From the IMG/VR virus record IMGVR_UViG_3300035187_000080, positions 1-22,710 of that record: a stretch of 22,710 nucleotides of DNA, one strand, 5' to 3'. Under the pieces are notes generated by a model that saw nothing but the letters and a program-made list of their open reading frames with translations, was not told the origin of the DNA and made no database searches. Source of the DNA: a virus. Of this stretch, positions 879 through 20,219 are shown piece by piece. Position 1 is the stretch's first letter; each line of letters opens with the position of its first letter. The position numbers were made by a program, and so were the translations under genes.

Positions 879-1108
879 AAGCGCCTCAAAAATCCCTAAA
901 GGATTGGGGCGACCAGAAATGGAGAACCAAAAGTGGAAAACCGTCTAGTAAAACGGGTGAGCGATATCTTCCAGAAGCTGCGATCAAAAGTCTCAGCCCT
1001 GCTGAGTACGCTGCGACGACCAAAGCCAAGCGGGCAGGAAAAGCCGCCGGAAAACAATTCGTAGCCCAACCCAAAACAATTGCAAAGAAAACCGCAGGGT
1101 ATAGATAA
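875..1108 (+). CDS. Small basic protein with GERYLPEAA / EYAATT motif, TTG start
   Basis: A 77-residue basic protein. No ATG is available at the start. A TTG at 875 overlaps the upstream TGA (TTGA), which makes it the natural coupled start. The recognisable core is LKDWGDQKWRTKSGKPSS, then GERYLPEAAIKSLSPAEYAA and KRAGKAAGKQFVAQPK, a pattern I know from many phage small proteins and some large viruses of algae, usually beside a GQWSARKAQ-type protein as here. No catalytic residues are apparent. The constant pairing with the preceding gene suggests the two proteins act together, which is inference. Confidence 0.75.
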   Translation: MKAPQKSLKDWGDQKWRTKSGKPSSKTGERYLPEAAIKSLSPAEYAATTKAKRAGKAAGKQFVAQPKTIAKKTAGYR

Positions 1109-2040
1109 TGGCTAAGACCACCGGAACCACAGCTTTTGATCTCGACATGAACGACCTCATTGAGGAGGCGTTTGAGCGTTGCGGTCAAGAACTTCGCACG
1201 GGTTACAACTTCCGCACAGCGCGGCGGTCGTTGAACCTGCTGACGATTGAGTGGGCAAATCGTGGTTTGAACTTCTGGACTGTAGAACAGGGCCAGATTC
1301 CAATGGTGACGGGTCAGGCTATATACCCCATGCCTACGGACACAATCAATCTCCTAGACATGGTTATACGCCAAAGTAACGCCACATCTAACCAGATCGA
1401 TATCAACATCAGCGGTATTTCAGAATCGACCTACATGAGTCTGCCAAACAAGTTGGCACAAGGTCGCCCAATTCAGGTCTGGTACAACCGTCAGTCCGGT
1501 CAAGAGAACAGCACTACGGTTACCCTTAACGGAACTATTTCATCTACAGCCACCACAATTACGTTGTCTAATGTGGATGGTTTGACCACTGCTGGGTTTA
1601 TCAAAATTGATAATGAAACCATCAGTTACCCCAACGTAGACCCTGTAAACAACCAGTTGTTAAACTGTGCTCGTGGACAGAACGGTACAACCGCTGCAGC
1701 GCATACTACTGGTGCAGCTATAACCGTGCAGAACCTACCTGCTATCAATGTGTGGCCTACACCTAACGCCCCCGGGGATCAGTACATGTTTGTGTACTAC
1801 CGCATGCGCCGTATTCAGGACGCTGGCTCTGGTGTAACTGTCCAAGACATTCCATTCCGCTTTATCCCCTGCATGGTGGCAGGATTGGCCTATCTGTTGA
1901 GCATGAAGTTGCCAGATGTTGATCCAAACCGTGTAATGGGTCTAAAGGCTGAGTATGAACAGCAGTGGGAATTGGCCCAGTCGGAAGACCGCGATACCTC
2001 TCCGTTGAGGTTTGTGCCAAGGAATTTGTTCTATGCCTAA
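1108..2040 (+). CDS. Head-tail connector / tail accessory factor, P22 gp4-like, with an inserted beta domain
   Basis: A 310-residue protein. The ATG at 1108 shares a base with the upstream stop (TAATG). Residues 10-130 hold the family pattern: LIEEAFERCG near the start, RTARRSLNLLTIEWANRGLN, then IYPMPTDTINLLDMVIR. Residues 210-310 hold NVWPTPNAP, YYRMRRIQDAG, the helix IPCMVAGLAYLLSMKLPD and a C-terminal YEQQWELAQSEDRDTSP. This matches the tail accessory factor that sits under the portal and receives the tail hub in P22-like phages. The usual proteins are much shorter (P22 gp4 is 166 residues). The excess is partly a Thr/Ser-rich beta segment at about 135-209 (TTITLSNVDGL, IKIDNETISY, CARGQNGTTAAAH) that reads as an insertion. 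Acts in the virion neck. Confidence 0.8.
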   Translation: MAKTTGTTAFDLDMNDLIEEAFERCGQELRTGYNFRTARRSLNLLTIEWANRGLNFWTVEQGQIPMVTGQAIYPMPTDTINLLDMVIRQSNATSNQIDINISGISESTYMSLPNKLAQGRPIQVWYNRQSGQENSTTVTLNGTISSTATTITLSNVDGLTTAGFIKIDNETISYPNVDPVNNQLLNCARGQNGTTAAAHTTGAAITVQNLPAINVWPTPNAPGDQYMFVYYRMRRIQDAGSGVTVQDIPFRFIPCMVAGLAYLLSMKLPDVDPNRVMGLKAEYEQQWELAQSEDRDTSPLRFVPRNLFYA

Positions 2041-2944: not shown

Positions 2945-3643
2945 ATGAATTACACCGAACTGTTCAATAACATTCAGTCGTACACGGAAAATAATTTTCC
3001 GGACTTCGCCGTTTCTGACGGCGCGATAGAAACGTCTAAAGAGCAGATTGATCGGTTTATTGAGCAAGCCGAATTGCGCATCTATAACACGGTGCAGTTT
3101 CCGTTTTTGCGCAAAAACATGACGGGTAATATTCAGTCAGGTAACAAATATCTTCAAGCGCCGAATGACTACCTTGCCACATATTCTTTGGCAGTGATTG
3201 ATTCATCAGGTAACTACGAGTACTTGTTAAACAAAGACGTAAACTTCATTCGCCAGTCGTACCCTAATCCTACGACAGATACTGGGATTCCAAAGTATTA
3301 CGCGTTGTTTGGCCCTGCAATTGTGGGTAGCGCAATTACAACTGAACTAACGTTTATTCTTGGCCCAACTCCTAATACTAATTACACAGCAGAGCTTCAT
3401 TTCTATTACTACCCTGAGTCAATTACGACAGCGGGTACGTCATGGCTTGGCGATAACTTTGATACTGTGCTCTTGTATGGTTCACTGGTTGAAGCGTATA
3501 CCTTTATGAAGGGTGAGCCTGACATGCTTGCTTTGTACGACGGTAAATACAAAGAAGCTCTTGCACAAGCTAAACGTTTGGGTGATGGTATGGAGCGTCA
3601 GGATGCTTATCGTTCTGGTCAATATAGACAGGCGGTGACCTGA
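2945..3643 (+). CDS. Phage adaptor protein (head-tail joining)
   Basis: A 232-residue protein. The N-terminal helices (about 1-50) end in IDRFIEQAELRIYNTVQFPF, and are followed by LRKNMTGNIQSGNKYLQAPN, then YLLNKDVNFIRQSYPNP and GIPKYYALFG. The C-terminus has a helical stretch (LLYGSLVEAYTFMKGEPD) and YKEALAQAKRLGDGMER. This is the pattern of the widespread phage adaptor family that packs against the portal or connector ring. The general layout parallels the gp4-like connector at 1108-2040 (a G...Y..P.D block followed by VI, and a C-terminal helix), so a distant common fold is likely. It acts in the virion neck. Confidence is good for family and moderate for exact position. Confidence 0.75.
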   Translation: MNYTELFNNIQSYTENNFPDFAVSDGAIETSKEQIDRFIEQAELRIYNTVQFPFLRKNMTGNIQSGNKYLQAPNDYLATYSLAVIDSSGNYEYLLNKDVNFIRQSYPNPTTDTGIPKYYALFGPAIVGSAITTELTFILGPTPNTNYTAELHFYYYPESITTAGTSWLGDNFDTVLLYGSLVEAYTFMKGEPDMLALYDGKYKEALAQAKRLGDGMERQDAYRSGQYRQAVT

Positions 3644-4065
3644 TGGCTTTCACAGGTAACTACTCCTGCAATACGTTGCGCACAGGCTTGATTAACGGTA
3701 CGTTGAGATTTGCAACAGATACGTTTCGTTTGGCGTTGTATACCAACTCAGCTACATTGAATCAACTGACTGCGGCGTATACATCAGATGGCGAGACTTC
3801 TGGTGGTAACTATGTAGCTGGTGGCCAAGTAGTCACGGCAACGGTTAATACCGCGCTTGGTTCAAACAGTAGTACCATTTATGTGTCGTTTTCTAGCCCT
3901 GCTTGGACTGGTGCAATCACGGCTCGTGGCGCGTTAATTTACGATGTCACTACTGGCGCGGCTGTCTGTGTTTTGGATTTTGGAAATAACATAACATCGA
4001 CACAAACTTTCACCGTAACGATGCCTGCTGACACCAGCACGGCTGCACTCATTAGACTTGTATAG
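3643..4065 (+). CDS. Beta-rich virion protein, paralogue of 4279-4755
   Basis: A 140-residue protein. The start codon shares a base with the upstream stop (TGATG). It shows the pattern of a common small phage virion protein: TFRLALYTNSATLNQLTAAY, ETSGGNYVAGG, a run of beta strands, ARGALIYDV, VLDFG, and a C-terminal FTVTMPADTSTAALIRL. Nearly every recognisable block recurs in the protein encoded at 4279-4755, so the two are paralogues. The low Lys/Arg and high Thr/Ser/Ala content and the beta prediction fit a fibre or decoration component, but the exact place in the particle is unknown. Confidence 0.75.
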   Translation: MAFTGNYSCNTLRTGLINGTLRFATDTFRLALYTNSATLNQLTAAYTSDGETSGGNYVAGGQVVTATVNTALGSNSSTIYVSFSSPAWTGAITARGALIYDVTTGAAVCVLDFGNNITSTQTFTVTMPADTSTAALIRLV

Positions 4066-4278: not shown

Positions 4279-4755
4279 ATGGCAAACACACAAGCAATGA
4301 CGACAAGTTTTATGGGTGAGTTAATGACCGCCACTCATAATTTTGGCACTGCCCCCGTTCGTGCAACCGGCGCAACTGATGCGTTTAAAGCCGCTTTGTA
4401 TTTAACAACTGCAACGGTTAATGCGGCTACCACTGCATATTCAGCAAGCAATGAAGTGTCTGGTACAGGCTATTCTGCGGGCGGTGTTGCGGTTACATTT
4501 GGCACGCCCCCAACAGCAACCAACAGCTCTGCAACAGCAGGTGTTGCATTTGTTACGCCTTCGGCCAGTATCACATACACCACAGTGACTTTGGCTACGG
4601 CGTTTGACGCAGTGTTGATTTACAACTCGACGCAAAGCGATAAGGCTGTGAGCGTACACACCTTTGGTTCACAGACAATTACTGCTGGTACGTTTACTCT
4701 TACCATGCCTGCGAATACAACTTCGACTGCTTTGATCCGTTTGGCTACAACCTAA
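4279..4755 (+). CDS. Beta-rich virion protein, paralogue of 3643-4065
   Basis: A 158-residue protein. The ATG at 4279 follows TAAGGAG (4266-4272). It shares with 3643-4065 the blocks FKAALYLTTATVNAATTAY, EVSGTGYSAGG, VLIYN, and the ending FTLTMPANTTSTALIRL. The N-terminus differs (MANTQAMTTSFMGELMTATH), with an extra segment, and may mediate a separate attachment. It is a likely structural component of tail or fibre. Duplication followed by divergence is the simplest explanation of the pair. Confidence 0.75.
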   Translation: MANTQAMTTSFMGELMTATHNFGTAPVRATGATDAFKAALYLTTATVNAATTAYSASNEVSGTGYSAGGVAVTFGTPPTATNSSATAGVAFVTPSASITYTTVTLATAFDAVLIYNSTQSDKAVSVHTFGSQTITAGTFTLTMPANTTSTALIRLATT

Positions 4756-4787: not shown

Positions 4788-5564
4788 ATGTTTGGAATCT
4801 CCGCATTCGCCGAAGCGCCGTTTGCCTCGCTTGCGGGGCAGACAATAGTTCTTCCTCTTACCGGCGTTCAGGCATCTGGCGCGGTAGGATCAGTCACGAT
4901 TGATTCGGCTTGTGCGCTTACGGGAGTAGAAGCGGCAGGAGCAGTTGGTATTGTTGTTGGAGACAACACAGTTGCACTAACTGGAGTTGAGGCGCTTGGT
5001 GCGGTAGGGGATGTCACAGAAACTAACAGCCCAGACGAAACTGGGGTGTTGGCCAATGGCGATGTTGGGACCGTCACAGTGGAGCAGTTGATTGCTCTGA
5101 CAGGTGTCGGAGCATCTGGCGCGGTTGGTAGTGTTGATTTTGCATACACTGCAATTTTGACGGGTGTTGAGGCTTCAGGCGCTGTTGGAACAATTATCCC
5201 CGGCAAAGAGTTCGGTCTTGACGGGGTACAAGCATCGGGCGCAGTTGGCACTGTTGATTTCTCGCCTATCCCAGATGGTGTTTTAGCTTCTGGTGCAGTT
5301 GGTACGATTGGGATGGGCGAACGGCTTATTGCCCTAACGGGTGTTCAAGCCGCTGGCGCGGTGGGAGATGTTACTGAGACCAACAGCCCAACTGAAGATG
5401 GTGTGGTGGCTACAGGCAGTGTAGGATCAGTTAGTACCAGCAGGACCGTGGCATTGGCTGGGGTCGGGGCCACGGGTCAAGTTGGCACAATGAATTATTT
5501 TTATTGGACAACAATTGATGACAACGGGACGCCGAACTGGCAAAATGTCGAAATGACGGTGTAA
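4788..5564 (+). CDS. Tandem-repeat virion protein, eleven copies of a roughly 20-residue LTGVxAxGAVGxV repeat
   Basis: A 258-residue protein. After a short N-terminus (MFGISAFAEAPFASLAGQ) it is almost wholly repeats of the form LTGVxASGAVGxV plus 6-8 variable residues. The GAVG-type tetrapeptides start at residues 31, 51, 71, 91, 111, 131, 151, 169, 190, 210 and 230, so the period is exactly 20 over the first seven copies. The C-terminus (about 235-258, FYWTTIDDNGTPNW) is unrelated and probably a cap or anchor. The regular Gly and small hydrophobic spacing suggests a beta-solenoid or a string of beta hairpins. It sits among fibre genes, so a virion surface or fibre role is likely. The same repeat closes the protein at 17540-17923. 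Confidence 0.75.
   Translation: MFGISAFAEAPFASLAGQTIVLPLTGVQASGAVGSVTIDSACALTGVEAAGAVGIVVGDNTVALTGVEALGAVGDVTETNSPDETGVLANGDVGTVTVEQLIALTGVGASGAVGSVDFAYTAILTGVEASGAVGTIIPGKEFGLDGVQASGAVGTVDFSPIPDGVLASGAVGTIGMGERLIALTGVQAAGAVGDVTETNSPTEDGVVATGSVGSVSTSRTVALAGVGATGQVGTMNYFYWTTIDDNGTPNWQNVEMTV
4857..5489 (+). repeat. Coding tandem repeats, 60-base period, encoding GVxAxGAVG units
   Basis: Eleven imperfect copies of about 60 bases encode the repeats of the protein above. The spacing is 20 residues six times, then 18, 21, 20 and 20. The stretch DVTETNSP occurs twice (protein residues 75-82 and 193-200), each time preceding a copy that starts with an acidic residue and lacks the usual LTGV. That points to a segmental duplication of several repeats. 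The copies differ at many synonymous positions, so the array is old or under diversifying change rather than freshly amplified. Confidence 0.75.
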
Positions 5565-6846: not shown

Positions 6847-7233
6847 ATGGCAAATCCCAACATAGTAAACGTAGCCGCCATTTACGGTAATACGTCTACA
6901 AACTTAATTTCATCTACAGCCGACCCGTTTGCAACTGCACTGGTTAATAACGCAGCCTCTAGCGGCAAGGTCTATAAGATCAACTCAATTGTTGTAGCCA
7001 ACGTAGACGGTACTTCTGCGGCTGACATTACGATCAAAATCTTTTCTCAAGACGATCTTGGCGGCACAGGAACAGCGATTGTTTCTACCATTTCTGTGCC
7101 TGCTGACGCCACACTGATTGTGACCGACAAGACCACATCGTTCTACCTGCTGGAAGACAAGTCTATTGGTGCTACGGCAAGTGTAGCCAACGATCTGGTT
7201 GTTACTTGCTCGTGGGAAGAGATCAACGCATAA
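6847..7233 (+). CDS. Small beta-rich virion protein
   Basis: A 128-residue protein with GAAGGA at 6835-6840 before the ATG at 6847. It starts MANPNIVNVAAIYGNTSTNL and has ALVNNAASSGKVYKINSIVV, then DITIKIFSQDDLG, VSVPADATL-like strands and a C-terminal LVVTCSWEEINA. The alternating hydrophobic pattern suggests a beta sandwich. I recognise the family from fibre regions of other phages as a structural protein of unknown position. It immediately precedes the kelch-like repeat proteins, so it may link them to the particle, which is inference. Confidence 0.7.
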   Translation: MANPNIVNVAAIYGNTSTNLISSTADPFATALVNNAASSGKVYKINSIVVANVDGTSAADITIKIFSQDDLGGTGTAIVSTISVPADATLIVTDKTTSFYLLEDKSIGATASVANDLVVTCSWEEINA

Positions 7234-7244
7234 AGGGGGGCATC

Positions 7245-8447
7245 ATGCCACTACGTCCTCCTGCTGGGTTTATCTCAGCCTTTTATGATCCGCTGAACAA
7301 CCCTAATGCGCCGACCATCGGGACGGCTACGGGTGGTGATGCTTCTGCGTCTGTGGCTTTTACTGCCCCTGCCAACGTGGGTGGTTCGGCCATCTCTTTG
7401 TATGGTGCTCGTTCAACGCCTGAAAACATTACCGCAACGGCAGCAGCTTCTCCTATTAGCGTCACAGGTCTGACCAACGGCACGGCTTACACGTTTGCTG
7501 TGTGGGCTATCAATACTTATGGGCCAAGTGCGTTTAGTGCGTCTAGTAACAGTGTGACGCCCGCGTTGGTGAGGGGGGTTTGGGCTGGTGGTTTTACCAA
7601 CGGGGATGTGCGTGTTAACAATATATCGTATGTAAATATAGCAAATACGGGTAACGCCACAGATTTTGGTGATTTGGTAGGAGCGTACGCTTCCATATCA
7701 GGCTGCGGCTCTACTACTCGTGGAATTTTTGCTGGTGGTGCAACTGGCTCTGACGCTGAAGTGAATGTAATTCAATACATCACTTTTGCAACTACAGGCA
7801 ATGCCACAGATTTTGGCGACATGGCTATTGTGAGAGAAACTCTAGGATGTTGTAATTCATCCACTAGAGGGTTAATTGGTGGGGGCGCGGATAATGGAAA
7901 TAACACAAATGTAATTGAGTACATCACTATTGCTTCTGCTGGAAATGCAACAGATTTTGGTGATTTAGCTAATGCAACAAGACAATTAGGCTCTTGTTCC
8001 TCTCCAACCAGAGGTATTTGGGCTGGTGGGCGAGTTAGTACAAATACAAGCGCCATAGTGTATGTAACAATTGCCTCTGAGGGTAACTCATCAAGTTTTG
8101 GTGATTTGTCTAGTGCTGCCAGAAACATTTCATCTTGTTCTTCGGCAACTCGTGGGCTGTTTGGTGCAATGCAAGAGTTGACTAACGGTACAAACGCAAT
8201 TGAGTACATTACTATTGCTTCAACTGGCAATTCCACAGATTTTGGTGATTTGACAATTGAGCGATTAAATAGGGCGGCGTGTTCATCTTCAACCAGAGGT
8301 GTTTTTGGTGGTGGTAATAGCGCGTATACCAACGTATTGGACTATGTAACAATTGCAACGACAGGTAACGCCCTTGATTTTGGCGACCTTCCAATAGAAG
8401 AAGGTGTCTTAGCCGCTTGCTCATCGTCTAACGGAGGAGTTCAATAA
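7245..8447 (+). CDS. Kelch/RCC1-like repeat protein A: FN3 domain plus six repeats
   Basis: A 400-residue protein. I chose the ATG at 7245, downstream of AAAGGGGGG (7232-7240). The longer frame would extend into the previous gene. Residues 1-20 (MPLRPPAGFISAFYDPL) look like a virion anchor. Residues 21-108 form a fibronectin type III domain (NAPTIGTATGGDASASVAF, ISVTGLTNGTAYTFAVWAIN, SNSVTPA). Residues 110-400 contain six repeats of about 45-50 residues: RG(V/I/L)(F/W)(A/G)GG, loop, YITIASxGNATDFGDL, loop, CSSST. Each repeat fits a four-strand propeller blade, so a six-bladed propeller is predicted. The fifth copy (RGLFGAMQELTNG) has lost the GGG. It ends CSSSNGGVQ. It is a likely adsorption or receptor-binding protein, with the repeat count seen and the fold and role inferred. 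Confidence 0.75.
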   Translation: MPLRPPAGFISAFYDPLNNPNAPTIGTATGGDASASVAFTAPANVGGSAISLYGARSTPENITATAAASPISVTGLTNGTAYTFAVWAINTYGPSAFSASSNSVTPALVRGVWAGGFTNGDVRVNNISYVNIANTGNATDFGDLVGAYASISGCGSTTRGIFAGGATGSDAEVNVIQYITFATTGNATDFGDMAIVRETLGCCNSSTRGLIGGGADNGNNTNVIEYITIASAGNATDFGDLANATRQLGSCSSPTRGIWAGGRVSTNTSAIVYVTIASEGNSSSFGDLSSAARNISSCSSATRGLFGAMQELTNGTNAIEYITIASTGNSTDFGDLTIERLNRAACSSSTRGVFGGGNSAYTNVLDYVTIATTGNALDFGDLPIEEGVLAACSSSNGGVQ

Positions 8448-11400
8448 TGCCAAGTTATTCAGGTGTATGGACACTCACTGCTCAGTACCAAGCCATTGGG
8501 GGTCAGAACTGGCCTATGGCTCCCGGCGCTCCTACAAGCGTTTCTGCCACGGCGGGTGATGCTCAAGCCACGGTAACCTTTGTTGCCCCCACATTTGTAG
8601 GTATTCCACCGCCAATCACTGGGTACTTGGCAACTTCAATTCCCGGCGGGCTTACCGCCACTGGCGCGTCGTCTCCATTGACGGTAACAGGCTTGAGTAA
8701 CGGAACGGCCTATACGTTTGCTGTGCAGGCTACCAATGCGGTTGGCTACGGCCCTGCTGGGACAAGTGGTAGTGTGACACCTGCGGCTCCAGATCGCGGA
8801 TTATTTGGTGGTGGCTCTAGCAATGTAATTGACTATGTAGCAATCTCGACATTAGGAAACGCTACCGATTTTGGTGACTTAACAAACAGCCCCGCCCAAA
8901 CAAGCGCCCTTGCGAATTCCGTTAGAGGCATTTGGTCGGGCGGAGCAAGCACCAACGTAATTCAGTACATTACGATTGCCACAACTGGCAATGCGGCGGA
9001 TTTTGGCGACCTTCTTGCCCCAACTTTTGCGCTTGCAGGGCTTGCAAACAGTACGCGTGGTGTGATTGGAGGCGGGTTTAATAATACTACTAGTTCTGCT
9101 ACCAATGTTATTCAATATGTAACCATAGCTACCACTGGAGATGCTATTGATTTTGGAGATTTAAATAAGCAAAGAAGGGGTGTAGCTTCTGCAAGCTCAA
9201 GTACAAGAGGCTTGTTTGCAGGTGGTGTAGATACTGATTTTAATGGTTCAAATACTATTGATTATGTAACAATTGCTTCAACCGGAAATGCAACAAATTT
9301 TGGTCAGTTAACAATAACAATATATTTATTTGCTGGTTGCTCTTCATCTACAAGAGCGGTTTTTGGTGGGGGCTCTTTAACCACCACTGGGGCTACGCAA
9401 AATGTTATTCAATATGTAACAATTGCTTCAACCGGTAACGCCACGGATTTTGGTGATCTTTTAAACACCAATACAGAAGCTATTGCTGCTTGTTCAAATG
9501 CAACTCGCGGCCTTTTTGCGGGCGGAGCAGACGGGCCAGCAACAAATGTAATTCAATACATTACCATTGCATCTACGGGTAATTCTATTGATTTTGGTGA
9601 TTTAACTACTGCAAGGTCAACTCTAGCTGGTTGTTCTGATTGCGGCGGAGGGCTTCAATAATGGCAATCTCTTCATGGAACGCAGGGATCATCAGACCCG
9701 TAGCCGTTGCTCCTGCTGGGCCGTTTCAAGACGGAGCGGCTCCCGGTGTATGGACACTTGACCAAGCAACATTTTGGATTCAGCAAGGGCTGTGGCCGAT
9801 TGCGGGTAACGCTGCGCCTATTGGTTTGTTTGGGGGTGGAACAACAGGATCGTTTACTAACGTAATTGACAAAATTATTATTGGCACATCCGGTAATGCC
9901 GTTGATTTTGGTGACTTAATTGCGAATACCGCCTTTTTAGCATCGTTTTCGTCAAGCACTCGCGGTGTATTTTCTGGCGGATATTCTGGGCCAACAAATG
10001 TAATTGCCTATGTCACATTTACCTCATCTGGTAACGCCGTTGATTTTGGTGATTTATTTGAGGCCGTTGGAGAAACGTGCGGTTTTTCTAATGCAATCAG
10101 AGGCGTTGTTAGCGGTGGACAAGATGTTTCTGCAAGAACGAATATAGTTCAATACGTAACCATTGCATCCACAGGCAATGCCACAGACTTTGGTGATCTA
10201 ACTGTTGCTCGTTCAGGCCCCGGCGCATGCGCTTCGTCTACTAGAGGTATTACTGCGGGCGGATATAATGCAGCCCTTGGCCGATTGAATGTTATCGATT
10301 ACGTAACCATAGCTTCTACCGGCAACGCAACTGATTTTGGAGATTTGACCTTTGCAAGAGAGGCGCTTGCGGGAAGTTCTTCTGAGACTCGCGGGTTGTT
10401 TGGAGGCGGACTAAGCACTGGGCCAACTACGTATTACAACGTCATTGATTACGTTACGATTGCCTCAGCAGGAAACGCTACAGACTTTGGTGACATGACG
10501 GTGGCTGTTCAGGGGTTGGCCGCTTGCTCCTCTTCAACCCTCGGGGTTTTTGGCGGCGGCTCAGATATTGGTAGTACACAATCAAATGTTATTAATTACG
10601 TCACCATTGCTTCCACAGGCAATGCAACGGATTTTGGAGACTTAACTGTGGCCCGTAGTGGCCTTGCAGGTTGCTCCTCTGCCGCCGCCGCTGTCCAACC
10701 CACGCCGACAAGTGCTGCGATGGCTTTGTTTGGGGGTGGGTATAACGGGAGTAGTAAGCAAACGGCAATTCAATACGTAAACATTGCCACAACAGGTAAT
10801 GCCATGATGTTTGGCGATTTGACTGTTGGGAATTATGAGCAAGGATCGTGTTCGTCTTTAACTCGCGGTTTGTGGGCAGGTGGGGAACCATCGTCCAGTA
10901 CAAACGTAATTGAATACATTGAATTTTCTTCTTTTGGAAAATGCTCTGATTTTGGTGATCTAACAGCGGCAACTTATAATTTGGCTGGGTGCTCTTCTTC
11001 AACTAGGGGCTTATTTGGAGGCGGCCAAAGCCCGTCGGCTACCAACGTAATCTCGTATGTAACGATTGCATCGACAGGCAATGCAACAGATTTTGGGGAT
11101 ACCATTGAAGCTAGATATTACATAGCAGCATGTGCTTCTCCGACGCGAGGGGTATTTGGTGGGGGTCGAAATACAACTCCAGCAGCCTCCAACGTAATTG
11201 ATTACGTCACTATTGCATCCACAGGTAACGCCACCGACTTTGGTGATCTAACTGCGGCAACACAAAATCTGGCCTCGTGCTCTTCCAGTACTCGCGGGCT
11301 ATTTGGTGGGGGCAGTACGGGGAGTTTAACTAACACAATTTCTTACATTACCATAGCATCTGCTGGTAACGCTACAGATTTTGGGGACTTGACTCAAGCT

Positions 11401-11586
11401 AGGTATGAATTGATGTCCACCTCATCCAATATTACGGGCCTGTTTGCAGGCGGAAGTCCTGCGCCGGGGTATTCAAATGTCATCGACTACGTAACAATTG
11501 CTTCTACAGGCAATGCCACTGATTTTGGTGATTTAATTCCAGCGGTTACCGTGGGGTCGGGTTGTTCTAACAACCACGGTGGTTTA
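7572..11586 (+). repeat. Coding array of 24 kelch-like repeats in four sets of six
   Basis: Twenty-four repeats of about 130-155 bases each encode the blades of proteins A, B and C. The core YVTIASTGNATDFGDL is nearly constant. The arrays are interrupted only by N-terminal parts of B (about 8448-8794) and C (about 9661-9822) and by a 40-base linker at about 10680-10720. The DNA of the cores is similar enough (attgcttcaacaggtaacgc-like) to support homologous recombination between genes and with other phages. Confidence 0.75.
8447..9661 (+). CDS. Kelch/RCC1-like repeat protein B: FN3 domain plus six repeats
   Basis: A 404-residue protein whose ATG shares a base with the stop of protein A (TAATG). 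The N-terminus has GVWTLTAQYQAIGGQNWPMA (residues 6-25), a motif also present in protein C. Residues 28-115 form a fibronectin type III domain (SVSATAGDAQATVTF, LTVTGLSNGTAYTFAVQATN, GSVTPA). Residues 117-404 hold six kelch-like repeats built around NVIQYVTIASTGNATDFGDL. It ends CSDCGGGLQ, equivalent to the end of protein A. The loops after the GG(G) and after FGDL vary most. It is a paralogue of A with the same domain order, so tandem gene duplication is clear. Predicted surface-exposed virion protein. Confidence 0.75.
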   Translation: MPSYSGVWTLTAQYQAIGGQNWPMAPGAPTSVSATAGDAQATVTFVAPTFVGIPPPITGYLATSIPGGLTATGASSPLTVTGLSNGTAYTFAVQATNAVGYGPAGTSGSVTPAAPDRGLFGGGSSNVIDYVAISTLGNATDFGDLTNSPAQTSALANSVRGIWSGGASTNVIQYITIATTGNAADFGDLLAPTFALAGLANSTRGVIGGGFNNTTSSATNVIQYVTIATTGDAIDFGDLNKQRRGVASASSSTRGLFAGGVDTDFNGSNTIDYVTIASTGNATNFGQLTITIYLFAGCSSSTRAVFGGGSLTTTGATQNVIQYVTIASTGNATDFGDLLNTNTEAIAACSNATRGLFAGGADGPATNVIQYITIASTGNSIDFGDLTTARSTLAGCSDCGGGLQ

Positions 11587-11589
11587 TGA
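9661..11589 (+). CDS. Kelch/RCC1-like repeat protein C: twelve repeats (two six-repeat units fused)
   Basis: A 642-residue protein. The ATG at 9661 shares a base with the stop of B. It has no FN3 domain. Residues 1-54 carry GVWTLDQATFWIQQGLWPIA (30 or so to 49), related to the N-terminus of B. Twelve repeats follow from residue 55. After repeat six the sequence reads CSSAAAAVQPTPTSAAM (about 338-354), where A and B end in CSSSNGGVQ and CSDCGGGLQ. Repeats seven to twelve then start with ALFGGGYNG and end CSNNHGGL. This reads as two six-bladed units joined by read-through of an old gene end. The in-frame ATG at 10720 has no good RBS, so one long protein is expected. Predicted adsorption protein with two propellers. 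Confidence 0.75.
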   Translation: MAISSWNAGIIRPVAVAPAGPFQDGAAPGVWTLDQATFWIQQGLWPIAGNAAPIGLFGGGTTGSFTNVIDKIIIGTSGNAVDFGDLIANTAFLASFSSSTRGVFSGGYSGPTNVIAYVTFTSSGNAVDFGDLFEAVGETCGFSNAIRGVVSGGQDVSARTNIVQYVTIASTGNATDFGDLTVARSGPGACASSTRGITAGGYNAALGRLNVIDYVTIASTGNATDFGDLTFAREALAGSSSETRGLFGGGLSTGPTTYYNVIDYVTIASAGNATDFGDMTVAVQGLAACSSSTLGVFGGGSDIGSTQSNVINYVTIASTGNATDFGDLTVARSGLAGCSSAAAAVQPTPTSAAMALFGGGYNGSSKQTAIQYVNIATTGNAMMFGDLTVGNYEQGSCSSLTRGLWAGGEPSSSTNVIEYIEFSSFGKCSDFGDLTAATYNLAGCSSSTRGLFGGGQSPSATNVISYVTIASTGNATDFGDTIEARYYIAACASPTRGVFGGGRNTTPAASNVIDYVTIASTGNATDFGDLTAATQNLASCSSSTRGLFGGGSTGSLTNTISYITIASAGNATDFGDLTQARYELMSTSSNITGLFAGGSPAPGYSNVIDYVTIASTGNATDFGDLIPAVTVGSGCSNNHGGL

Positions 11590-15412: not shown

Positions 15413-17536
15413 ATGCCATTACAAAAATTCCTGTTTAAACCGGGCGTCAACCGGGAAAACACACGCTATACCACCGAAGGCGGCTGGTATGAGGGCGACA
15501 AAATTCGTTTTCGTCAAGGCAATCCTGAAAAGATTGGTGGTTGGACTCCATTTGCTGGTAGTACTTTTGAAGGCGTATGCCGTTCTCTGTGGAACTGGAT
15601 TACGCTTACGGGTGAAAGTTTAGTTGGTGTTGGCACTAACTTATATTTTTATATTCTCAAAGGTAGTGATTACTATGATGTCACTCCAATACGTACAACA
15701 ATTACGTTAACAAATCCGTTTACGGCAACTAATGGTTCAGCCGTCATAGCGGTTTCTGATGTAAACCATGGGTGTGTGGATAGCGATACAGTTATCTATA
15801 GCGGTGGAGGAATTGTTGGTTTAGGTGGCAACATCACCGCCGCAGTGCTAACAGGCGCTTTTCAAATTACGTTTGTTGACGATGACAACTACACCATTAC
15901 AGTATCGGCTACTGCAAATGCCACAGATGCTTCTGGCTCCCCCGGTGGTGGTACGGTCGTAACGCAATACGAAGTAAATACTGGCCCCGCATATCAGGTG
16001 CCGTTGGTTGGTTGGGGTGCTGGCCCTTGGGGTGCAGGTACATGGGGTAATGGGCAAACTACATCTACGGCTTTGCAACTGTGGAGTCAGCAAAACTTTG
16101 GTGAAGATTTAATCTATGGCCCTCGCGGTCAAGGCATCTACTATTGGAGTGCCAACGTAGGTTACTCACCTATTCAAATCACAATCAGTATTGCCGCACC
16201 GGGGCAAATTACTTTACCCGCTGGGTTTTCGTTCCCTGATGGCACAACAATCTCGTTTACATCCACAGGTGCTTTGCCTACTGGCTTAACTGTTGGGCAA
16301 GTGTATTTTGTAGTCAATTCCACGGGTGGCACATTCAATGTGTCTACAACAATTGCTGGCTCTCCAATTACAACTTCTGGTGGCCAGTCTGGCATCCAGC
16401 GTATATCTCAGCGCGGTATTGATTTAGCTGATGCGGGTGACGATGACACGCCTATCTATCAAAACTTTATTCTTGTATCTGATGCCAGCCGTTTTGTGGT
16501 TGTATTTGGTACAAACGATTATGGTAGTAGCGTACTAAACCCAATGTTAATTCGTTGGTCTGATTCAGATGACCCATACACATGGACTCCACAGGCTACA
16601 AATCAAGCAGGTAGTTTGCAACTATCCCACGGCTCTCAAATTGTTACCGCTGTGCAGTCTCGCCAAGAGATTGTGGTGTTTACAGACTCTTCGCTGTATT
16701 CATTTCAGTACGTAGGCCCACCTTTTGTGTGGACAGCACAACTTATTGCAGACAACGTATCTATCATTGGCCCTAACGCCGCTGTCATTGCATCAGGTGC
16801 GGTGTATTGGATGGGTATTGATAAGTTCTACAAATATGATGGCCGTGTACAAACTTTAAATTGCGACTTACGCCGCTATATTTTTAGTGACTTTAATACA
16901 CTTCAAACAGAACAAGTCTACGCCGGTACAAACGAAGGTTTTAACGAAATCTGGTGGTTCTATTGTTCCGCAGACAGTTTGGAAAATGACCGTTATGTAG
17001 TGTACAACTACATAGAAAACGTTTGGTATTACGGTAACTTGGGCCGTACTGCATGGCTTGATTCAGGTCTGTTACCTTTACCTGTTGCGGCTACTTACAA
17101 CTACGAATTGGTTCAACACGAAGACGGTGTTGATGCTTACGATCTTGGCAACATTACGCCTATTGAGGCTTATATTTCTTCGTCAGAATTTGACATTGGT
17201 GATGGTCACAACTTTGGTTATGTGTGGCGTGTAGTGCCTGACTTAACATTTACGGGTTCGTCTAGTACGGCAGGCACATCAGGTTCGGGTGTACCTACCC
17301 CTGCGGTGACTATGACTTTATACCCTCTGCAAAGCTCTGGTTCCGGCACTGGCACTGCGGCTAATGGTACGGTTACAAAAGGTTCTACCTATAATATTAC
17401 TGAAGAGTACACAGGGATTATCTACACACGTGCCCGTGGTCGTCAGATGATATTTAAAATTGCGTCTACCCAACTTGGTACAACATGGCAATTAGGTGCG
17501 CCTAGATTAGATATTAAAGCGGATGGTAGGAGATAA
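15413..17536 (+). CDS. Tail hub / packaged DNA stabilisation protein, P22 gp10-like
   Basis: A 707-residue protein. The N-terminus (PLQKFLFKPGVNRENTRYTT, then EGGWYEGDKIRFRQGNPEKI) is a signature of the phage stabilisation protein family that closes the tail of P22-like phages. Residues 95-185 (TTITLTNPFTATNGSAVIAV, then VNHGC, FQITFVDDDNYTITVS, NATDASGSPGGG) and 255-328 (FPDGTTISFTSTGALPTGLT, VYFVVNSTGG, SPITTSGGQSG) read as modular beta segments. The second looks inserted. The rest has NFILVSDASRFVVVFGTNDY, DPYTWTPQATNQAG, SLYSFQYVGPPFVW, NEIWWFYCS and a C-terminal RARGRQMIFKIAS. Expected to bind the gp4-like connector. Fold is likely a propeller hub. Secure family call. Confidence 0.85.
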   Translation: MPLQKFLFKPGVNRENTRYTTEGGWYEGDKIRFRQGNPEKIGGWTPFAGSTFEGVCRSLWNWITLTGESLVGVGTNLYFYILKGSDYYDVTPIRTTITLTNPFTATNGSAVIAVSDVNHGCVDSDTVIYSGGGIVGLGGNITAAVLTGAFQITFVDDDNYTITVSATANATDASGSPGGGTVVTQYEVNTGPAYQVPLVGWGAGPWGAGTWGNGQTTSTALQLWSQQNFGEDLIYGPRGQGIYYWSANVGYSPIQITISIAAPGQITLPAGFSFPDGTTISFTSTGALPTGLTVGQVYFVVNSTGGTFNVSTTIAGSPITTSGGQSGIQRISQRGIDLADAGDDDTPIYQNFILVSDASRFVVVFGTNDYGSSVLNPMLIRWSDSDDPYTWTPQATNQAGSLQLSHGSQIVTAVQSRQEIVVFTDSSLYSFQYVGPPFVWTAQLIADNVSIIGPNAAVIASGAVYWMGIDKFYKYDGRVQTLNCDLRRYIFSDFNTLQTEQVYAGTNEGFNEIWWFYCSADSLENDRYVVYNYIENVWYYGNLGRTAWLDSGLLPLPVAATYNYELVQHEDGVDAYDLGNITPIEAYISSSEFDIGDGHNFGYVWRVVPDLTFTGSSSTAGTSGSGVPTPAVTMTLYPLQSSGSGTGTAANGTVTKGSTYNITEEYTGIIYTRARGRQMIFKIASTQLGTTWQLGAPRLDIKADGRR

Positions 17537-17539
17537 CCT

Positions 17540-17923
17540 ATGTCCATGCTTCAAAATCGGTCTTCACCAAACATACCGCAAGCACCGGCGCAGTACGATG
17601 TTGCATACATGAATGCTTTGAGTAACGTGATTCGGTTGTTTTTTAATAACATTAACACCGTACAACAACTTAATCTGGCAAGTTTGAATCTTGACTTACG
17701 TACACTGCCAACTGATGCTGACCTACCTAATCTACGTATTGGCGATGTATACCGAGATACCCAAGATGGTGTACAAGCCACAAGTCAAATGCTTCGTATT
17801 AAAGTCCCAGTTGAATTGGCTGGAGTTTCGGCTTCTGGCACGGTTGGGTCAGTCGGGACTACAAAAACAATTGGATTAACGGGTATTTCTGGGGCTGGGG
17901 CTGTTGGCACGGTGACCCCTTAG
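17540..17923 (+). CDS. Tail-region protein ending in the 20-residue GVxAxGxVG repeat
   Basis: A 127-residue protein starting three bases after the hub gene. Its N-terminal part (about 15-50, PAQYDVAYMNALSNVIRLFF and NNINTVQQLNLASLNL) is a conserved helix found in phage proteins next to the gp10-like hub. The middle (PTDADLPNLRIGDVYRDTQD) is acidic. The last 37 residues read VELAGVSASGTVGSVGTTKT and IGLTGISGAGAVGTVTP, that is, two copies of the repeat of 4788-5564 with the same 20-residue spacing. It probably attaches to the hub by its N-terminus and displays the repeat, as inference. A helix-only relative without repeats would be the usual form. Confidence 0.72.
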   Translation: MSMLQNRSSPNIPQAPAQYDVAYMNALSNVIRLFFNNINTVQQLNLASLNLDLRTLPTDADLPNLRIGDVYRDTQDGVQATSQMLRIKVPVELAGVSASGTVGSVGTTKTIGLTGISGAGAVGTVTP

Positions 17924-19007: not shown

Positions 19008-20219
19008 ATGATTATCCCAAATAAATTTAATGGCTTCTATGGTGGTGTACGCCGTTGTTTTGGCGGCGGTGGAGGTGGAGGCGGCGGTGATGGCGGCGGT
19101 GATGGCGGTGGCCCCGGTGGTGATGCTGGTGGCCCTAATGATGTTTATACTCCCCCCACAAATACTGGCAACGTTGTAAACACTGGTAATACTGTAAACA
19201 CTGGCAATACAGCGGTTTCTACAGCTACCACTACCCCTCCATACGCTAATATGGCTGTCAATACTCAACAAGGGTATAACACTCTGGCCGGTATGAAAGG
19301 TATTCCTTGGGAGAAATCTGGCACTGCTTATAACGAGTTGTTAAACCAAGGGTTTACTAGTAACCAGATTAGAGACTCTGCAAGCCAAATGTATGGCAAA
19401 CCGTCTGACTCTAACTGGAGTGGGATGGTGCAGAACGCTGGTATGACTTCACCTACTGGCAGACCCATGGCGGGTTCTGATCAATTTTTTCAGCCCATCT
19501 ACAACACGTCATACCAAAACTACGCTCGACCTGCTACGCAGTTTGATACAAGCACATATGGCACACAGCCCGTGCAATCGCCAGCTTTTAACTCCGGCAT
19601 GTCTCGTAGGAATATCAATAACACAATTGGTAATTACTTTCAACAAAATCCAAACTCAAATATAAGTAATACTTTAGATTTCATGCGAGATAGTGGTATT
19701 AACCGCACGGATATTCAATCATTTGGTGGTTATAACAACTACGGCCCTCAGATGTCTATGCCGCAGACACAACAGCCATTTAACCCTTACACCAATAGTT
19801 CTGGGTTTGGTGGTGGCTTTGGTGGTGGCTTTGGTGGTGGCTTTGGTGGTGGCTTTGGTGGTGGCTTTGGTGGTGGCTACCCCGATGGTATGTTCCGTAC
19901 TCAAACGCAAAGTCCATTTAGCTACCAACAACAAAGCTATCAACCCCCAATGCAGATGCAGACTCCGTTTAGTTACCAACAACAAAGCTATCAGCCTAGC
20001 TACCAACAACAAAGCTATCAACCTTCTTATGGTGGATATAGCGACTATGGCATGCAGACTCCATTTAGCTACCAACAACCCGCGCCACAACCTGTAATAC
20101 CGCGCTCATCTGGCCCAACAACTCCTATCGTAGGTCGGTCTTCAGGTTTCCGTGGCACCCCTAACGTAATGCGCCGTGCTGAAGGCGGCATTGCGTCTTT
20201 GATGGATGATGTCGAATGA
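19008..20219 (+). CDS. Low-complexity Gly/Gln/Tyr-rich protein, candidate ejected protein
   Basis: A 403-residue protein with AAGGAAT before the ATG at 19008. Residues 18-42 are nearly all Gly with some Asp and Pro (R-C-F-then a nine-Gly run). Then comes an Asn/Thr-rich stretch (NTGNVVNTGNTVNTGNTAV), a partly globular region (NTQQGYNTLAGMKGIPWEKS and after), six FGGG units (about 267-290), and several copies of SYQQQSYQP. The C-terminus ends RRAEGGIASLMDDVE, where AEGGIASL is a common phage-protein tail. The Tyr/Gln/Gly content resembles prion-like or phase-separating sequence. The position between candidate ejection proteins suggests a flexible, packaged protein. The function is unknown. Confidence 0.68.
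   Translation: MIIPNKFNGFYGGVRRCFGGGGGGGGGDGGGDGGGPGGDAGGPNDVYTPPTNTGNVVNTGNTVNTGNTAVSTATTTPPYANMAVNTQQGYNTLAGMKGIPWEKSGTAYNELLNQGFTSNQIRDSASQMYGKPSDSNWSGMVQNAGMTSPTGRPMAGSDQFFQPIYNTSYQNYARPATQFDTSTYGTQPVQSPAFNSGMSRRNINNTIGNYFQQNPNSNISNTLDFMRDSGINRTDIQSFGGYNNYGPQMSMPQTQQPFNPYTNSSGFGGGFGGGFGGGFGGGFGGGFGGGYPDGMFRTQTQSPFSYQQQSYQPPMQMQTPFSYQQQSYQPSYQQQSYQPSYGGYSDYGMQTPFSYQQPAPQPVIPRSSGPTTPIVGRSSGFRGTPNVMRRAEGGIASLMDDVE
19806..19877 (+). repeat. Six perfect 12-base tandem repeats (tttggtggtggc, encoding FGGG)
   Basis: The unit tttggtggtggc occurs six times without a single change. It is followed by a variant ending in tac. The 12-base length keeps the frame, so slippage would add or remove FGGG units without breaking the protein. 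Because all copies are identical, the array is recent or actively homogenised, unlike the other repeats in this window. Confidence 0.9.

What the first reader, a model, noticed from the sequence alone, without database searches (positions are those of the whole stretch)
4788..5564. A 20-residue GVxAxGAVG repeat is used by two distant virion genes
The protein at 4788-5564 is built of eleven such repeats (exact period 20 over the first seven). The protein at 17540-17923, 12 kb away and next to the tail hub, ends with two copies at the same 20-residue spacing. Finding the same repeat in two separate structural genes suggests exchange of a module, or co-assembly in which the repeats stack together.
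Basis: partly seen in the sequence, partly recalled or inferred. Interest (0 to 1): 0.55.

Follow-up and report, generated by a model that had tools for sequence, protein, structure and literature searches.

The report
Shared repeat in two phage tail proteins
An uncultured phage builds the shaft of one tail-region protein from eleven copies of a 20-residue repeat and hangs two copies on the end of a second tail protein; relatives suggest the second gene gained its copies once, long ago, and that repeat arrays are swappable building material rather than a lock-and-key pair.

Summary
The protein at 4788-5564 has eleven GVxAxGxVG repeats (seven at exact 20-residue spacing); the one at 17540-17923 ends with two, 20 residues apart. 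A profile built only from arrays finds 36 of 39 distinct tails of the second family at E<1e-3. In the related virus contigs fetched, only these two gene families reach that score.

The first gene encodes N-cap, repeat array, Trp-rich C-cap, in the fibre region between adaptor and nozzle genes. Copy number varies widely and the repeat type is swappable: relatives keep the caps but carry a different 20-residue repeat (ETATGTDAV). A cultured pelagiphage carries a third, of about 22 residues.

The second gene directly follows the nozzle gene, where SU10 encodes its trimeric tail needle. It occurs as a 90-residue form without repeats or with 1-4 repeats.

On nozzle trees the repeat tail changed once and array type five or six times. 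Five array switches happened without a tail being gained. Tail repeats are no closer to their own genome's array than to other genomes'. So sharing is one old event; ongoing exchange and obligate co-assembly are not supported. Fold predictions are low-confidence but beta-solenoid-like.

The parts
4788..5564 (+). Cap-array-cap protein (258 aa), fibre-region gene, called P0001 here
   Evidence: 334 relatives in viral contigs by tblastn, best 80 kept
4788..4856 (+). N-cap MFGISAFAEAPFASLAGQ..., like the N-caps of relatives that carry other repeat types
   Evidence: Alignments A1 and A4; sequences
4857..5492 (+). Array of eleven GVxAxGxVG units, period 18-21 (mode 20)
5493..5564 (+). Trp-rich C-cap NYFYWTTIDDNGTPNWQNVEMTV plus stop
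   Evidence: hhalign A1 against A4: 98.1% probability, E 9.5e-14, over the last repeat and C-cap only
15413..17536 (+). Tail nozzle protein (707 aa)
   Evidence: phrog_3287 E 4.9e-66; 9nwi_Y E 6.2e-17, 6 chains; the Bruynoghevirus protein PaP4_059 matches 9nwi_Y, 'nozzle gp16' 8zkk and SU10 tail chain 7z47_G
17540..17923 (+). Needle-position protein (127 aa), called P0002 here
   Evidence: directly behind the nozzle gene, as SU10 needle gp18 is numbered behind nozzle gp17 (PMC9509320 passages)
17540..17803 (+). P0002 N-domain, residues 1-88, conserved with and without tail; amphipathic helix at about 19-38
   Evidence: Alignment A3, 28 rows; hydrophobic columns 19, 23, 27, 31, 34, 38; helix 21-37 in a low-confidence model
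17804..17923 (+). P0002 repeat tail, two GV units, plus stop
   Evidence: absent from the 90-aa form, which ends LRIKTST in 56 of 76 distinct short ORFs
1108..2040 (+). SU10-type adaptor-like protein
   Evidence: PF24175 34.8 bits, cut-off 27
2945..3643 (+). SU10-type adaptor-like protein, second copy
   Evidence: PF24175 73.3 bits, cut-off 27

Best explanation
P0001 is a virion protein of the fibre region of a short-tailed phage. A short N-cap and a Trp-rich C-cap are joined by a rod of 20-residue beta repeats. Rod length is set by copy number, and the repeat type can be replaced while the caps stay. P0002 is the protein at the tail-needle position, encoded directly after the nozzle: a short N-terminal helix anchors it, probably as a trimer in the nozzle mouth, and the C-end is variable. 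In one clade the C-end is 1-4 copies of the same GV repeat, acquired once, probably from a P0001-type array, and inherited since. Shown: the repeats, their likeness, the gene positions, the cap/array modularity and the single change on the tree. Inferred: presence in the virion, fold (beta-solenoid or similar), trimerisation, needle function, donor of the tail, and the structural (spacer) role of the repeat.
For: Repeats and shuffles. Profile links the two families; hhalign of A1 and A2 95.9%, E 5e-9. Copy number 5 to 41, median 10.5, in 62 distinct arrays by a loose motif (the longest has 24 by the stricter motif). Caps similar while arrays differ: and P0007 of cultured Pelagibacter phage HTVC023P. 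P0002 short and long forms; its N-terminal stretch fused to other C-terminal domains, directly behind the nozzle, in G091, G092, G096. Nozzle identity; 7Z47 is the SU10 tail (PMC9509320). SU10 numbering nozzle gp17, trimeric needle gp18. In Bruynoghevirus the gene after the nozzle encodes a protein solved with three chains (9nxp). Trees: tail 1 change, array 6 or 5. Model: regular strands, VIA Z 12.1 to RsaA (4.5 A, 229 aligned) and 11.7 to HxuA (3.6 A, 190 aligned).
Against: Both models are weak (mean pLDDT 48.2 and 61.0), and Foldseek gives no PDB match under E 1 for either; for a repeat protein VIA Z near 12 may mean only a common arrangement. P0002 has no sequence match to a solved needle nor to PaP4_058 (hhalign probability 0.2%), so needle identity rests on gene position. 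PHROGs files the nozzle family under head and packaging, and a table in PMC13299392 calls its 9NWI match a head-to-tail adapter. I searched for no virion proteomics of these phages. Short repeats can converge, so homology of tail and array repeats is likely, not proven.
Confidence: 0.55

Rival explanations
1. Co-assembly: the two units on the needle-position protein stack on the P0001 array and dock it at the tail tip.
For: Among 60 records where both states could be read, 28 of 28 with a repeat tail have a GV array, against 10 of 32 without (Fisher 7e-9, ignoring kinship). No array switch inside the tail-bearing clade.
Against: The association collapses to one event on the nozzle tree. Absence of switches in the clade has probability 0.13-0.20 at the rate seen elsewhere. 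Thirteen records have GV arrays and no GV tail. Four of the 28 (G000, G085, G088, G089) were not found through P0002, so they have GV arrays by choice; without them it is 24 of 24.
Confidence: 0.12
2. Ongoing exchange: repeats move repeatedly between the two genes by recombination or gene conversion.
For: Both genes of one genome carry the same repeat, and copy number varies in both.
Against: Own-array likeness equals other-array likeness at protein and DNA level in 17 genomes; one tail change on the trees; 33 of 39 tails end in the same [VI]GTxTP form.
Confidence: 0.06
3. Convergence: the short glycine-valine repeat arose twice as a generic beta-rod motif.
For: Other phages use different repeats of 20-22 residues between similar caps, so the rod tolerates many sequences; the units are short and simple.
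Against: The array profile hits 36 of 39 tails. Of 110 distinct ORFs that it hits at E<1e-3, 36 are P0002, 72 are P0001 types, and the last two are the P0001-like proteins of MW202675 and CRP-345.
Confidence: 0.15
4. The repeats are flexible, disordered linkers rather than a folded rod.
For: Low pLDDT, especially residues 156-258.
Against: Periodic strands at the same place in most units, near-invariant Gly and alternating Val/Ala/Leu columns (the Gly columns are partly set by the motif used to cut units), and solenoid-like alignments.
Confidence: 0.15

Closest known systems
Uncharacterised repeat proteins: HTVC023P gp68 (QGZ17697.1), DSL-LC04 WJZ48131.1, MW202675 UOF80312.1, CRP-345 gp55
   Same: An N-cap like P0001's in HTVC023P gp68 (LLGITAISQSPIASLGG) and a Trp-rich C-cap in gp68 and DSL-LC04; GV-type units by profile in DSL-LC04, MW202675 and CRP-345
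   Different: Best repeat lag 22 in HTVC023P, DSL-LC04 and MW202675; repeat sequence differs in gp68; I saw no GV repeat on the protein encoded next after the nozzle in DSL-LC04, HTVC023P or CRP-902
SU10 (Kuravirus) short tail: adaptor gp11, nozzle gp17, trimeric needle gp18
   Same: Adaptor-like genes by Pfam PF24175, nozzle related through Bruynoghevirus, P0002 directly after the nozzle gene
   Different: P0002 has no detectable sequence likeness to a solved needle; its C-end is a repeat tail, whereas the modelled SU10 needle ends in a beta-prism
Bruynoghevirus tail (Pa223/PaP4): nozzle 9nwi, following gene product 9nxp
   Same: Nozzle related by sequence; following gene encodes a protein solved with three chains
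   Different: P0002 N-domain not alignable to it

Membership tests
SU10/Bruynoghevirus-type nozzle (gene 15413-17536) | Sequence relation to a solved nozzle | tested here: met
   9nwi_Y E 6.2e-17; PaP4_059, same length as 9nwi_Y and matching it over all 513 residues, also matches 8zkk 'nozzle gp16' (2.4e-63) and SU10 tail chain 7z47_G (7.6e-29). The window protein itself did not match 8zkk or 7z47 at E up to 1
Tail needle (SU10 gp18 kind), for P0002 | Gene directly after the nozzle gene, same strand | tested here: met
   window 15413-17536 then 17540-17923; numbering gp17/gp18 in PMC9509320
Tail needle (SU10 gp18 kind), for P0002 | Sequence or fold relation to a solved needle | tested here: inconclusive
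   Best PDB sequence hits are unrelated recombinases at E 0.13 and above; fold search E 3.5 and above with a pLDDT 61 model
Tail needle (SU10 gp18 kind), for P0002 | Trimer with coiled-coil shaft | not testable with these tools
   Only an amphipathic helix pattern at about 19-38 seen
Beta-solenoid rod, for the P0001 array | Confident solenoid fold | tested here: inconclusive
   pLDDT 48.2; Foldseek PDB E 1.4 and above; VIA Z 12.1 and 11.7 to RsaA and HxuA
Known repeat family (Pfam, PHROGs) | Match above curated cut-off (Pfam) or at E<0.001 (PHROGs) | tested here: not met
   Pfam: none above cut-off for either protein; PHROGs: best phrog_13352 E 0.0067 for P0001, none for P0002

The most novel reading that the evidence does not exclude
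The fibre-region rods of these phages are a cassette system: constant end caps hold interchangeable arrays of different 20-22-residue beta repeats. In one clade the needle tip carries the same repeat, so that needle and rod form one composite beta structure at the tail tip.
Probability: 0.1. Interest if true: 0.65.

Novelty: new variant of a known kind. Interest (0 to 1): 0.4.

Why it matters
Modular tail parts are well known (recalled), but whole-array replacement between similar caps, with the repeat also appearing on the nozzle-adjacent protein, gives a clean natural series (type and number of repeats) for asking what a phage rod repeat is for. The family is common in IMG/VR (334 relatives of P0001 confirmed in one scan), and the four relatives in named phage records are annotated as hypothetical proteins.

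Tried and rejected
Named phage records by tblastn at E 1e-5 gave nothing for either protein; at E 10, three records for P0001; the 90-aa P0002 form at E 1 gave none; an ET-type protein at E 0.01 gave none. Bacterial genome contigs: 34 pattern matches, none confirmed, so no host is inferred. hhalign of the GV and ET families aligned only the last repeat and C-caps, so common descent of the two repeats is untested beyond a GV-like last unit in some ET arrays. Sequence relation of P0002 to PaP4_058: not found. Remnants of repeats in 180 bases behind the stop of short P0002 forms: 0 of 79 distinct stretches, so loss by a recent stop is not seen. My first regex for P0002 was wrong, and its P0002 counts and its remnant count are void; one search replaces them. 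In one search one ORF counted as short ends LRIKVPVF and is cut by a locus end. The list of other ORFs was filtered by motif, so I repeated it unfiltered.

Literature: searches (the last two for 20-residue repeats and tandem repeats in phage) listed no paper that I could see describes this repeat. I read passages only of PMC13299392, PMC10611076, PMC9599517 and PMC9509320.

Limits of the table and tree. Of 86 records with a P0002 domain, G063 was dropped (nozzle fragment under 300 aa); 25 more (17 without tail, 8 with) had no array found, in most because the contig does not reach that far. Of 20 records fetched through P0001 and searched for P0002, 14 had no match, 3 a partial one, 3 a full one. 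Of the 22 ET calls, 20 were read as sequence; G040 and G043 rest on score. Of the ten GV calls without tail, G069, G079 and G081 rested on score and show as GV hits of loci L236 and L230 and by score alone for G081. The tree used the quick method and warned of long branches (G047, G073); leaving these and short rows out gave the same tail result. Tail units were cut by motif and include a few spurious overlaps; 17 of 28 genomes could be used.

Full report
What is there. The window is a whole virus record of 22,710 bases. The ORF 4788-5564 (P0001, 258 aa) holds eleven GVxAxGxVG motifs, seven at exact spacing 20, then 18, 21, 20, 20. The ORF 17540-17923 (P0002, 127 aa) ends with two, 20 apart. 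Shuffles do not give this. A profile of 487 units cut from arrays only scores the window's P0002 at E 4.8e-7 and P0001 at 4e-75. It scores 36 of 39 distinct tail-bearing P0002 relatives below 1e-3; L097, L105 and L127 miss. Unfiltered, 110 distinct ORFs of the loci reach 1e-3: 36 are P0002, 69 P0001 by the Trp cap, 3 more P0001 by eye, and 2 are the P0001-like proteins of the named records MW202675 and CRP-345.

Surroundings. Two adaptor-like genes (PF24175) lie at 1108-2040 and 2945-3643. P0001 follows a phrog_644 gene, with a second one a little further up, and fibre or minor-tail profile matches follow it. An endolysin gene precedes the nozzle at 15413-17536, and P0002 starts three bases behind the nozzle's stop. 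In SU10 the nozzle is gp17 and the trimeric needle gp18 (PMC9509320 passages). In Bruynoghevirus the protein after the nozzle is solved with three chains (9nxp), and the nozzle matches 9nwi, assigned to Pseudomonas phage Pa223 in a table of PMC13299392, where it is called a head-to-tail adapter. P0002 therefore sits at the needle position. Sequence and fold searches neither confirm nor exclude that it is a needle.

P0001 relatives. The viral contig scan found 334 relatives and kept 80. Among 62 distinct full arrays, copy number by a loose motif runs from 5 to 41 with median 10.5. Among 69 distinct ORFs with five or more motifs, 83% of spacings under 30 residues are 20 or 21. N-caps come in at least two kinds (FGxxxF... 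and WG-rich). In many relatives whose P0002 is short, the gene at the same place has the same kinds of caps but another array, ETATGTDAVxxx. Of its spacings between neighbouring motifs, 160 of 218 shown are 20 and most others are near multiples of 20; these counts include redundant loci. hhalign aligns the two families over the last repeat and C-cap only, 98.1% and E 9.5e-14. Some ET arrays end with a GV-like unit, as in NVYPTGIQLLVSIGNVLVW. Cultured Pelagibacter phage HTVC023P gp68 has similar caps around a third repeat of about 22 residues. In the loci held the ET repeat was seen only in this gene.

P0002 relatives. The scan found 219 relatives and kept 80; two more scans with short forms found 302 and 279 and kept 80 each. 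Distinct ORFs: 39 with a tail, 76 without, 1 cut. Tails hold mostly 2 or 3 motifs by a loose pattern (19 and 12 of 39; 4 in four, 1 in three, none by the pattern in one). Short forms end LRIKTST in 56 of 76. In G091, G092 and G096, which have GV arrays (loci L048, L056, L074), only the first 40 or so residues match; the rest is a different domain, and the gene lies directly behind the nozzle.

Is the pairing real? Among 60 records where both states could be read, all 28 with a tail have a GV array; of 32 without a tail, 22 have ET and 10 GV (Fisher 7e-9). On a nozzle tree of 85 rows (quick IQ-TREE, 46 of 68 inner branches starred) the tail changes once and the array six times, five of them outside the tail-bearing clade. 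A stricter set of 80 rows gives one tail change and five array changes, all outside. Independent-pair tests had too few pairs to be significant. With equal rates, no switch within the tail-bearing clade has probability 0.13 to 0.20. Tail units are as close to other genomes' arrays as to their own: protein mean 0.579 against 0.581, and best match 0.713 against 0.708; DNA 0.570 against 0.568, and 0.666 against 0.667; p 0.26 to 0.63; 17 genomes with both sets of units extracted. The sharing is thus one old event, and there is no independent evidence that the two proteins need each other.

Fold. AlphaFold2 with alignments of 33 and 53 rows gave mean pLDDT 48.2 and 61.0. The P0001 model has regularly spaced short strands. 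Foldseek found no PDB match under E 1 but two uncharacterised phage proteins in BFVD at 3.9e-5 and 7.1e-4. VIA aligned it to the S-layer protein RsaA (Z 12.1, 4.5 A, 229 residues) and the HxuA secretion domain (Z 11.7, 3.6 A, 190 residues); that these stretches are beta-helical is recalled. This favours a solenoid-like rod without proving it.

Mechanism. Inference from these facts: P0001 is a rod whose length and surface can be retuned by copy number or by replacing the array, while its caps keep the attachment points. P0002 is a small anchor in the nozzle mouth whose C-end is free to carry different material, here two rod units at the tip. The repeat most likely serves as stiff structural filler. 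Confidence 0.55.

Novelty. The repeat is in no Pfam family above cut-off and only weakly in PHROGs. My literature searches listed no description of it (see Tried and rejected). I file it as a new variant of modular short-tail components.

Noticed in passing
window 7206-11589: Three consecutive ORFs built of a second repeat, around VIxYVTIASTGNATDFGDL with GGG turns; the two of them scanned have PHROG matches of unknown function, and the first also one to a minor tail protein.
   Followed up: no
window 3643-4065 and 4279-4755: Two paralogues of phrog_644 (unknown function), with one short ORF between them, directly before P0001.
   Followed up: no
window 1108-2040 and 2945-3643: Two SU10-adaptor-like genes; the first also matches tail and baseplate profiles around residues 126-208.
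   Followed up: no
window 19008-20219: Gly- and Gln-rich low-complexity protein (FGGGFGGG, SYQQQSYQP) with no PHROG match at E<0.001.
   Followed up: no
L276-L280, L282-L289, L292, L293 (unnamed virus records): Second 20-residue repeat type (ETATGTDAV and looser variants) between similar caps at the P0001 locus.
   Followed up: yes
L296, L297, L298: P0002-like N-terminus fused to larger, different C-terminal domains, directly behind the nozzle; one has a BclA_C match below its cut-off.
   Followed up: partly
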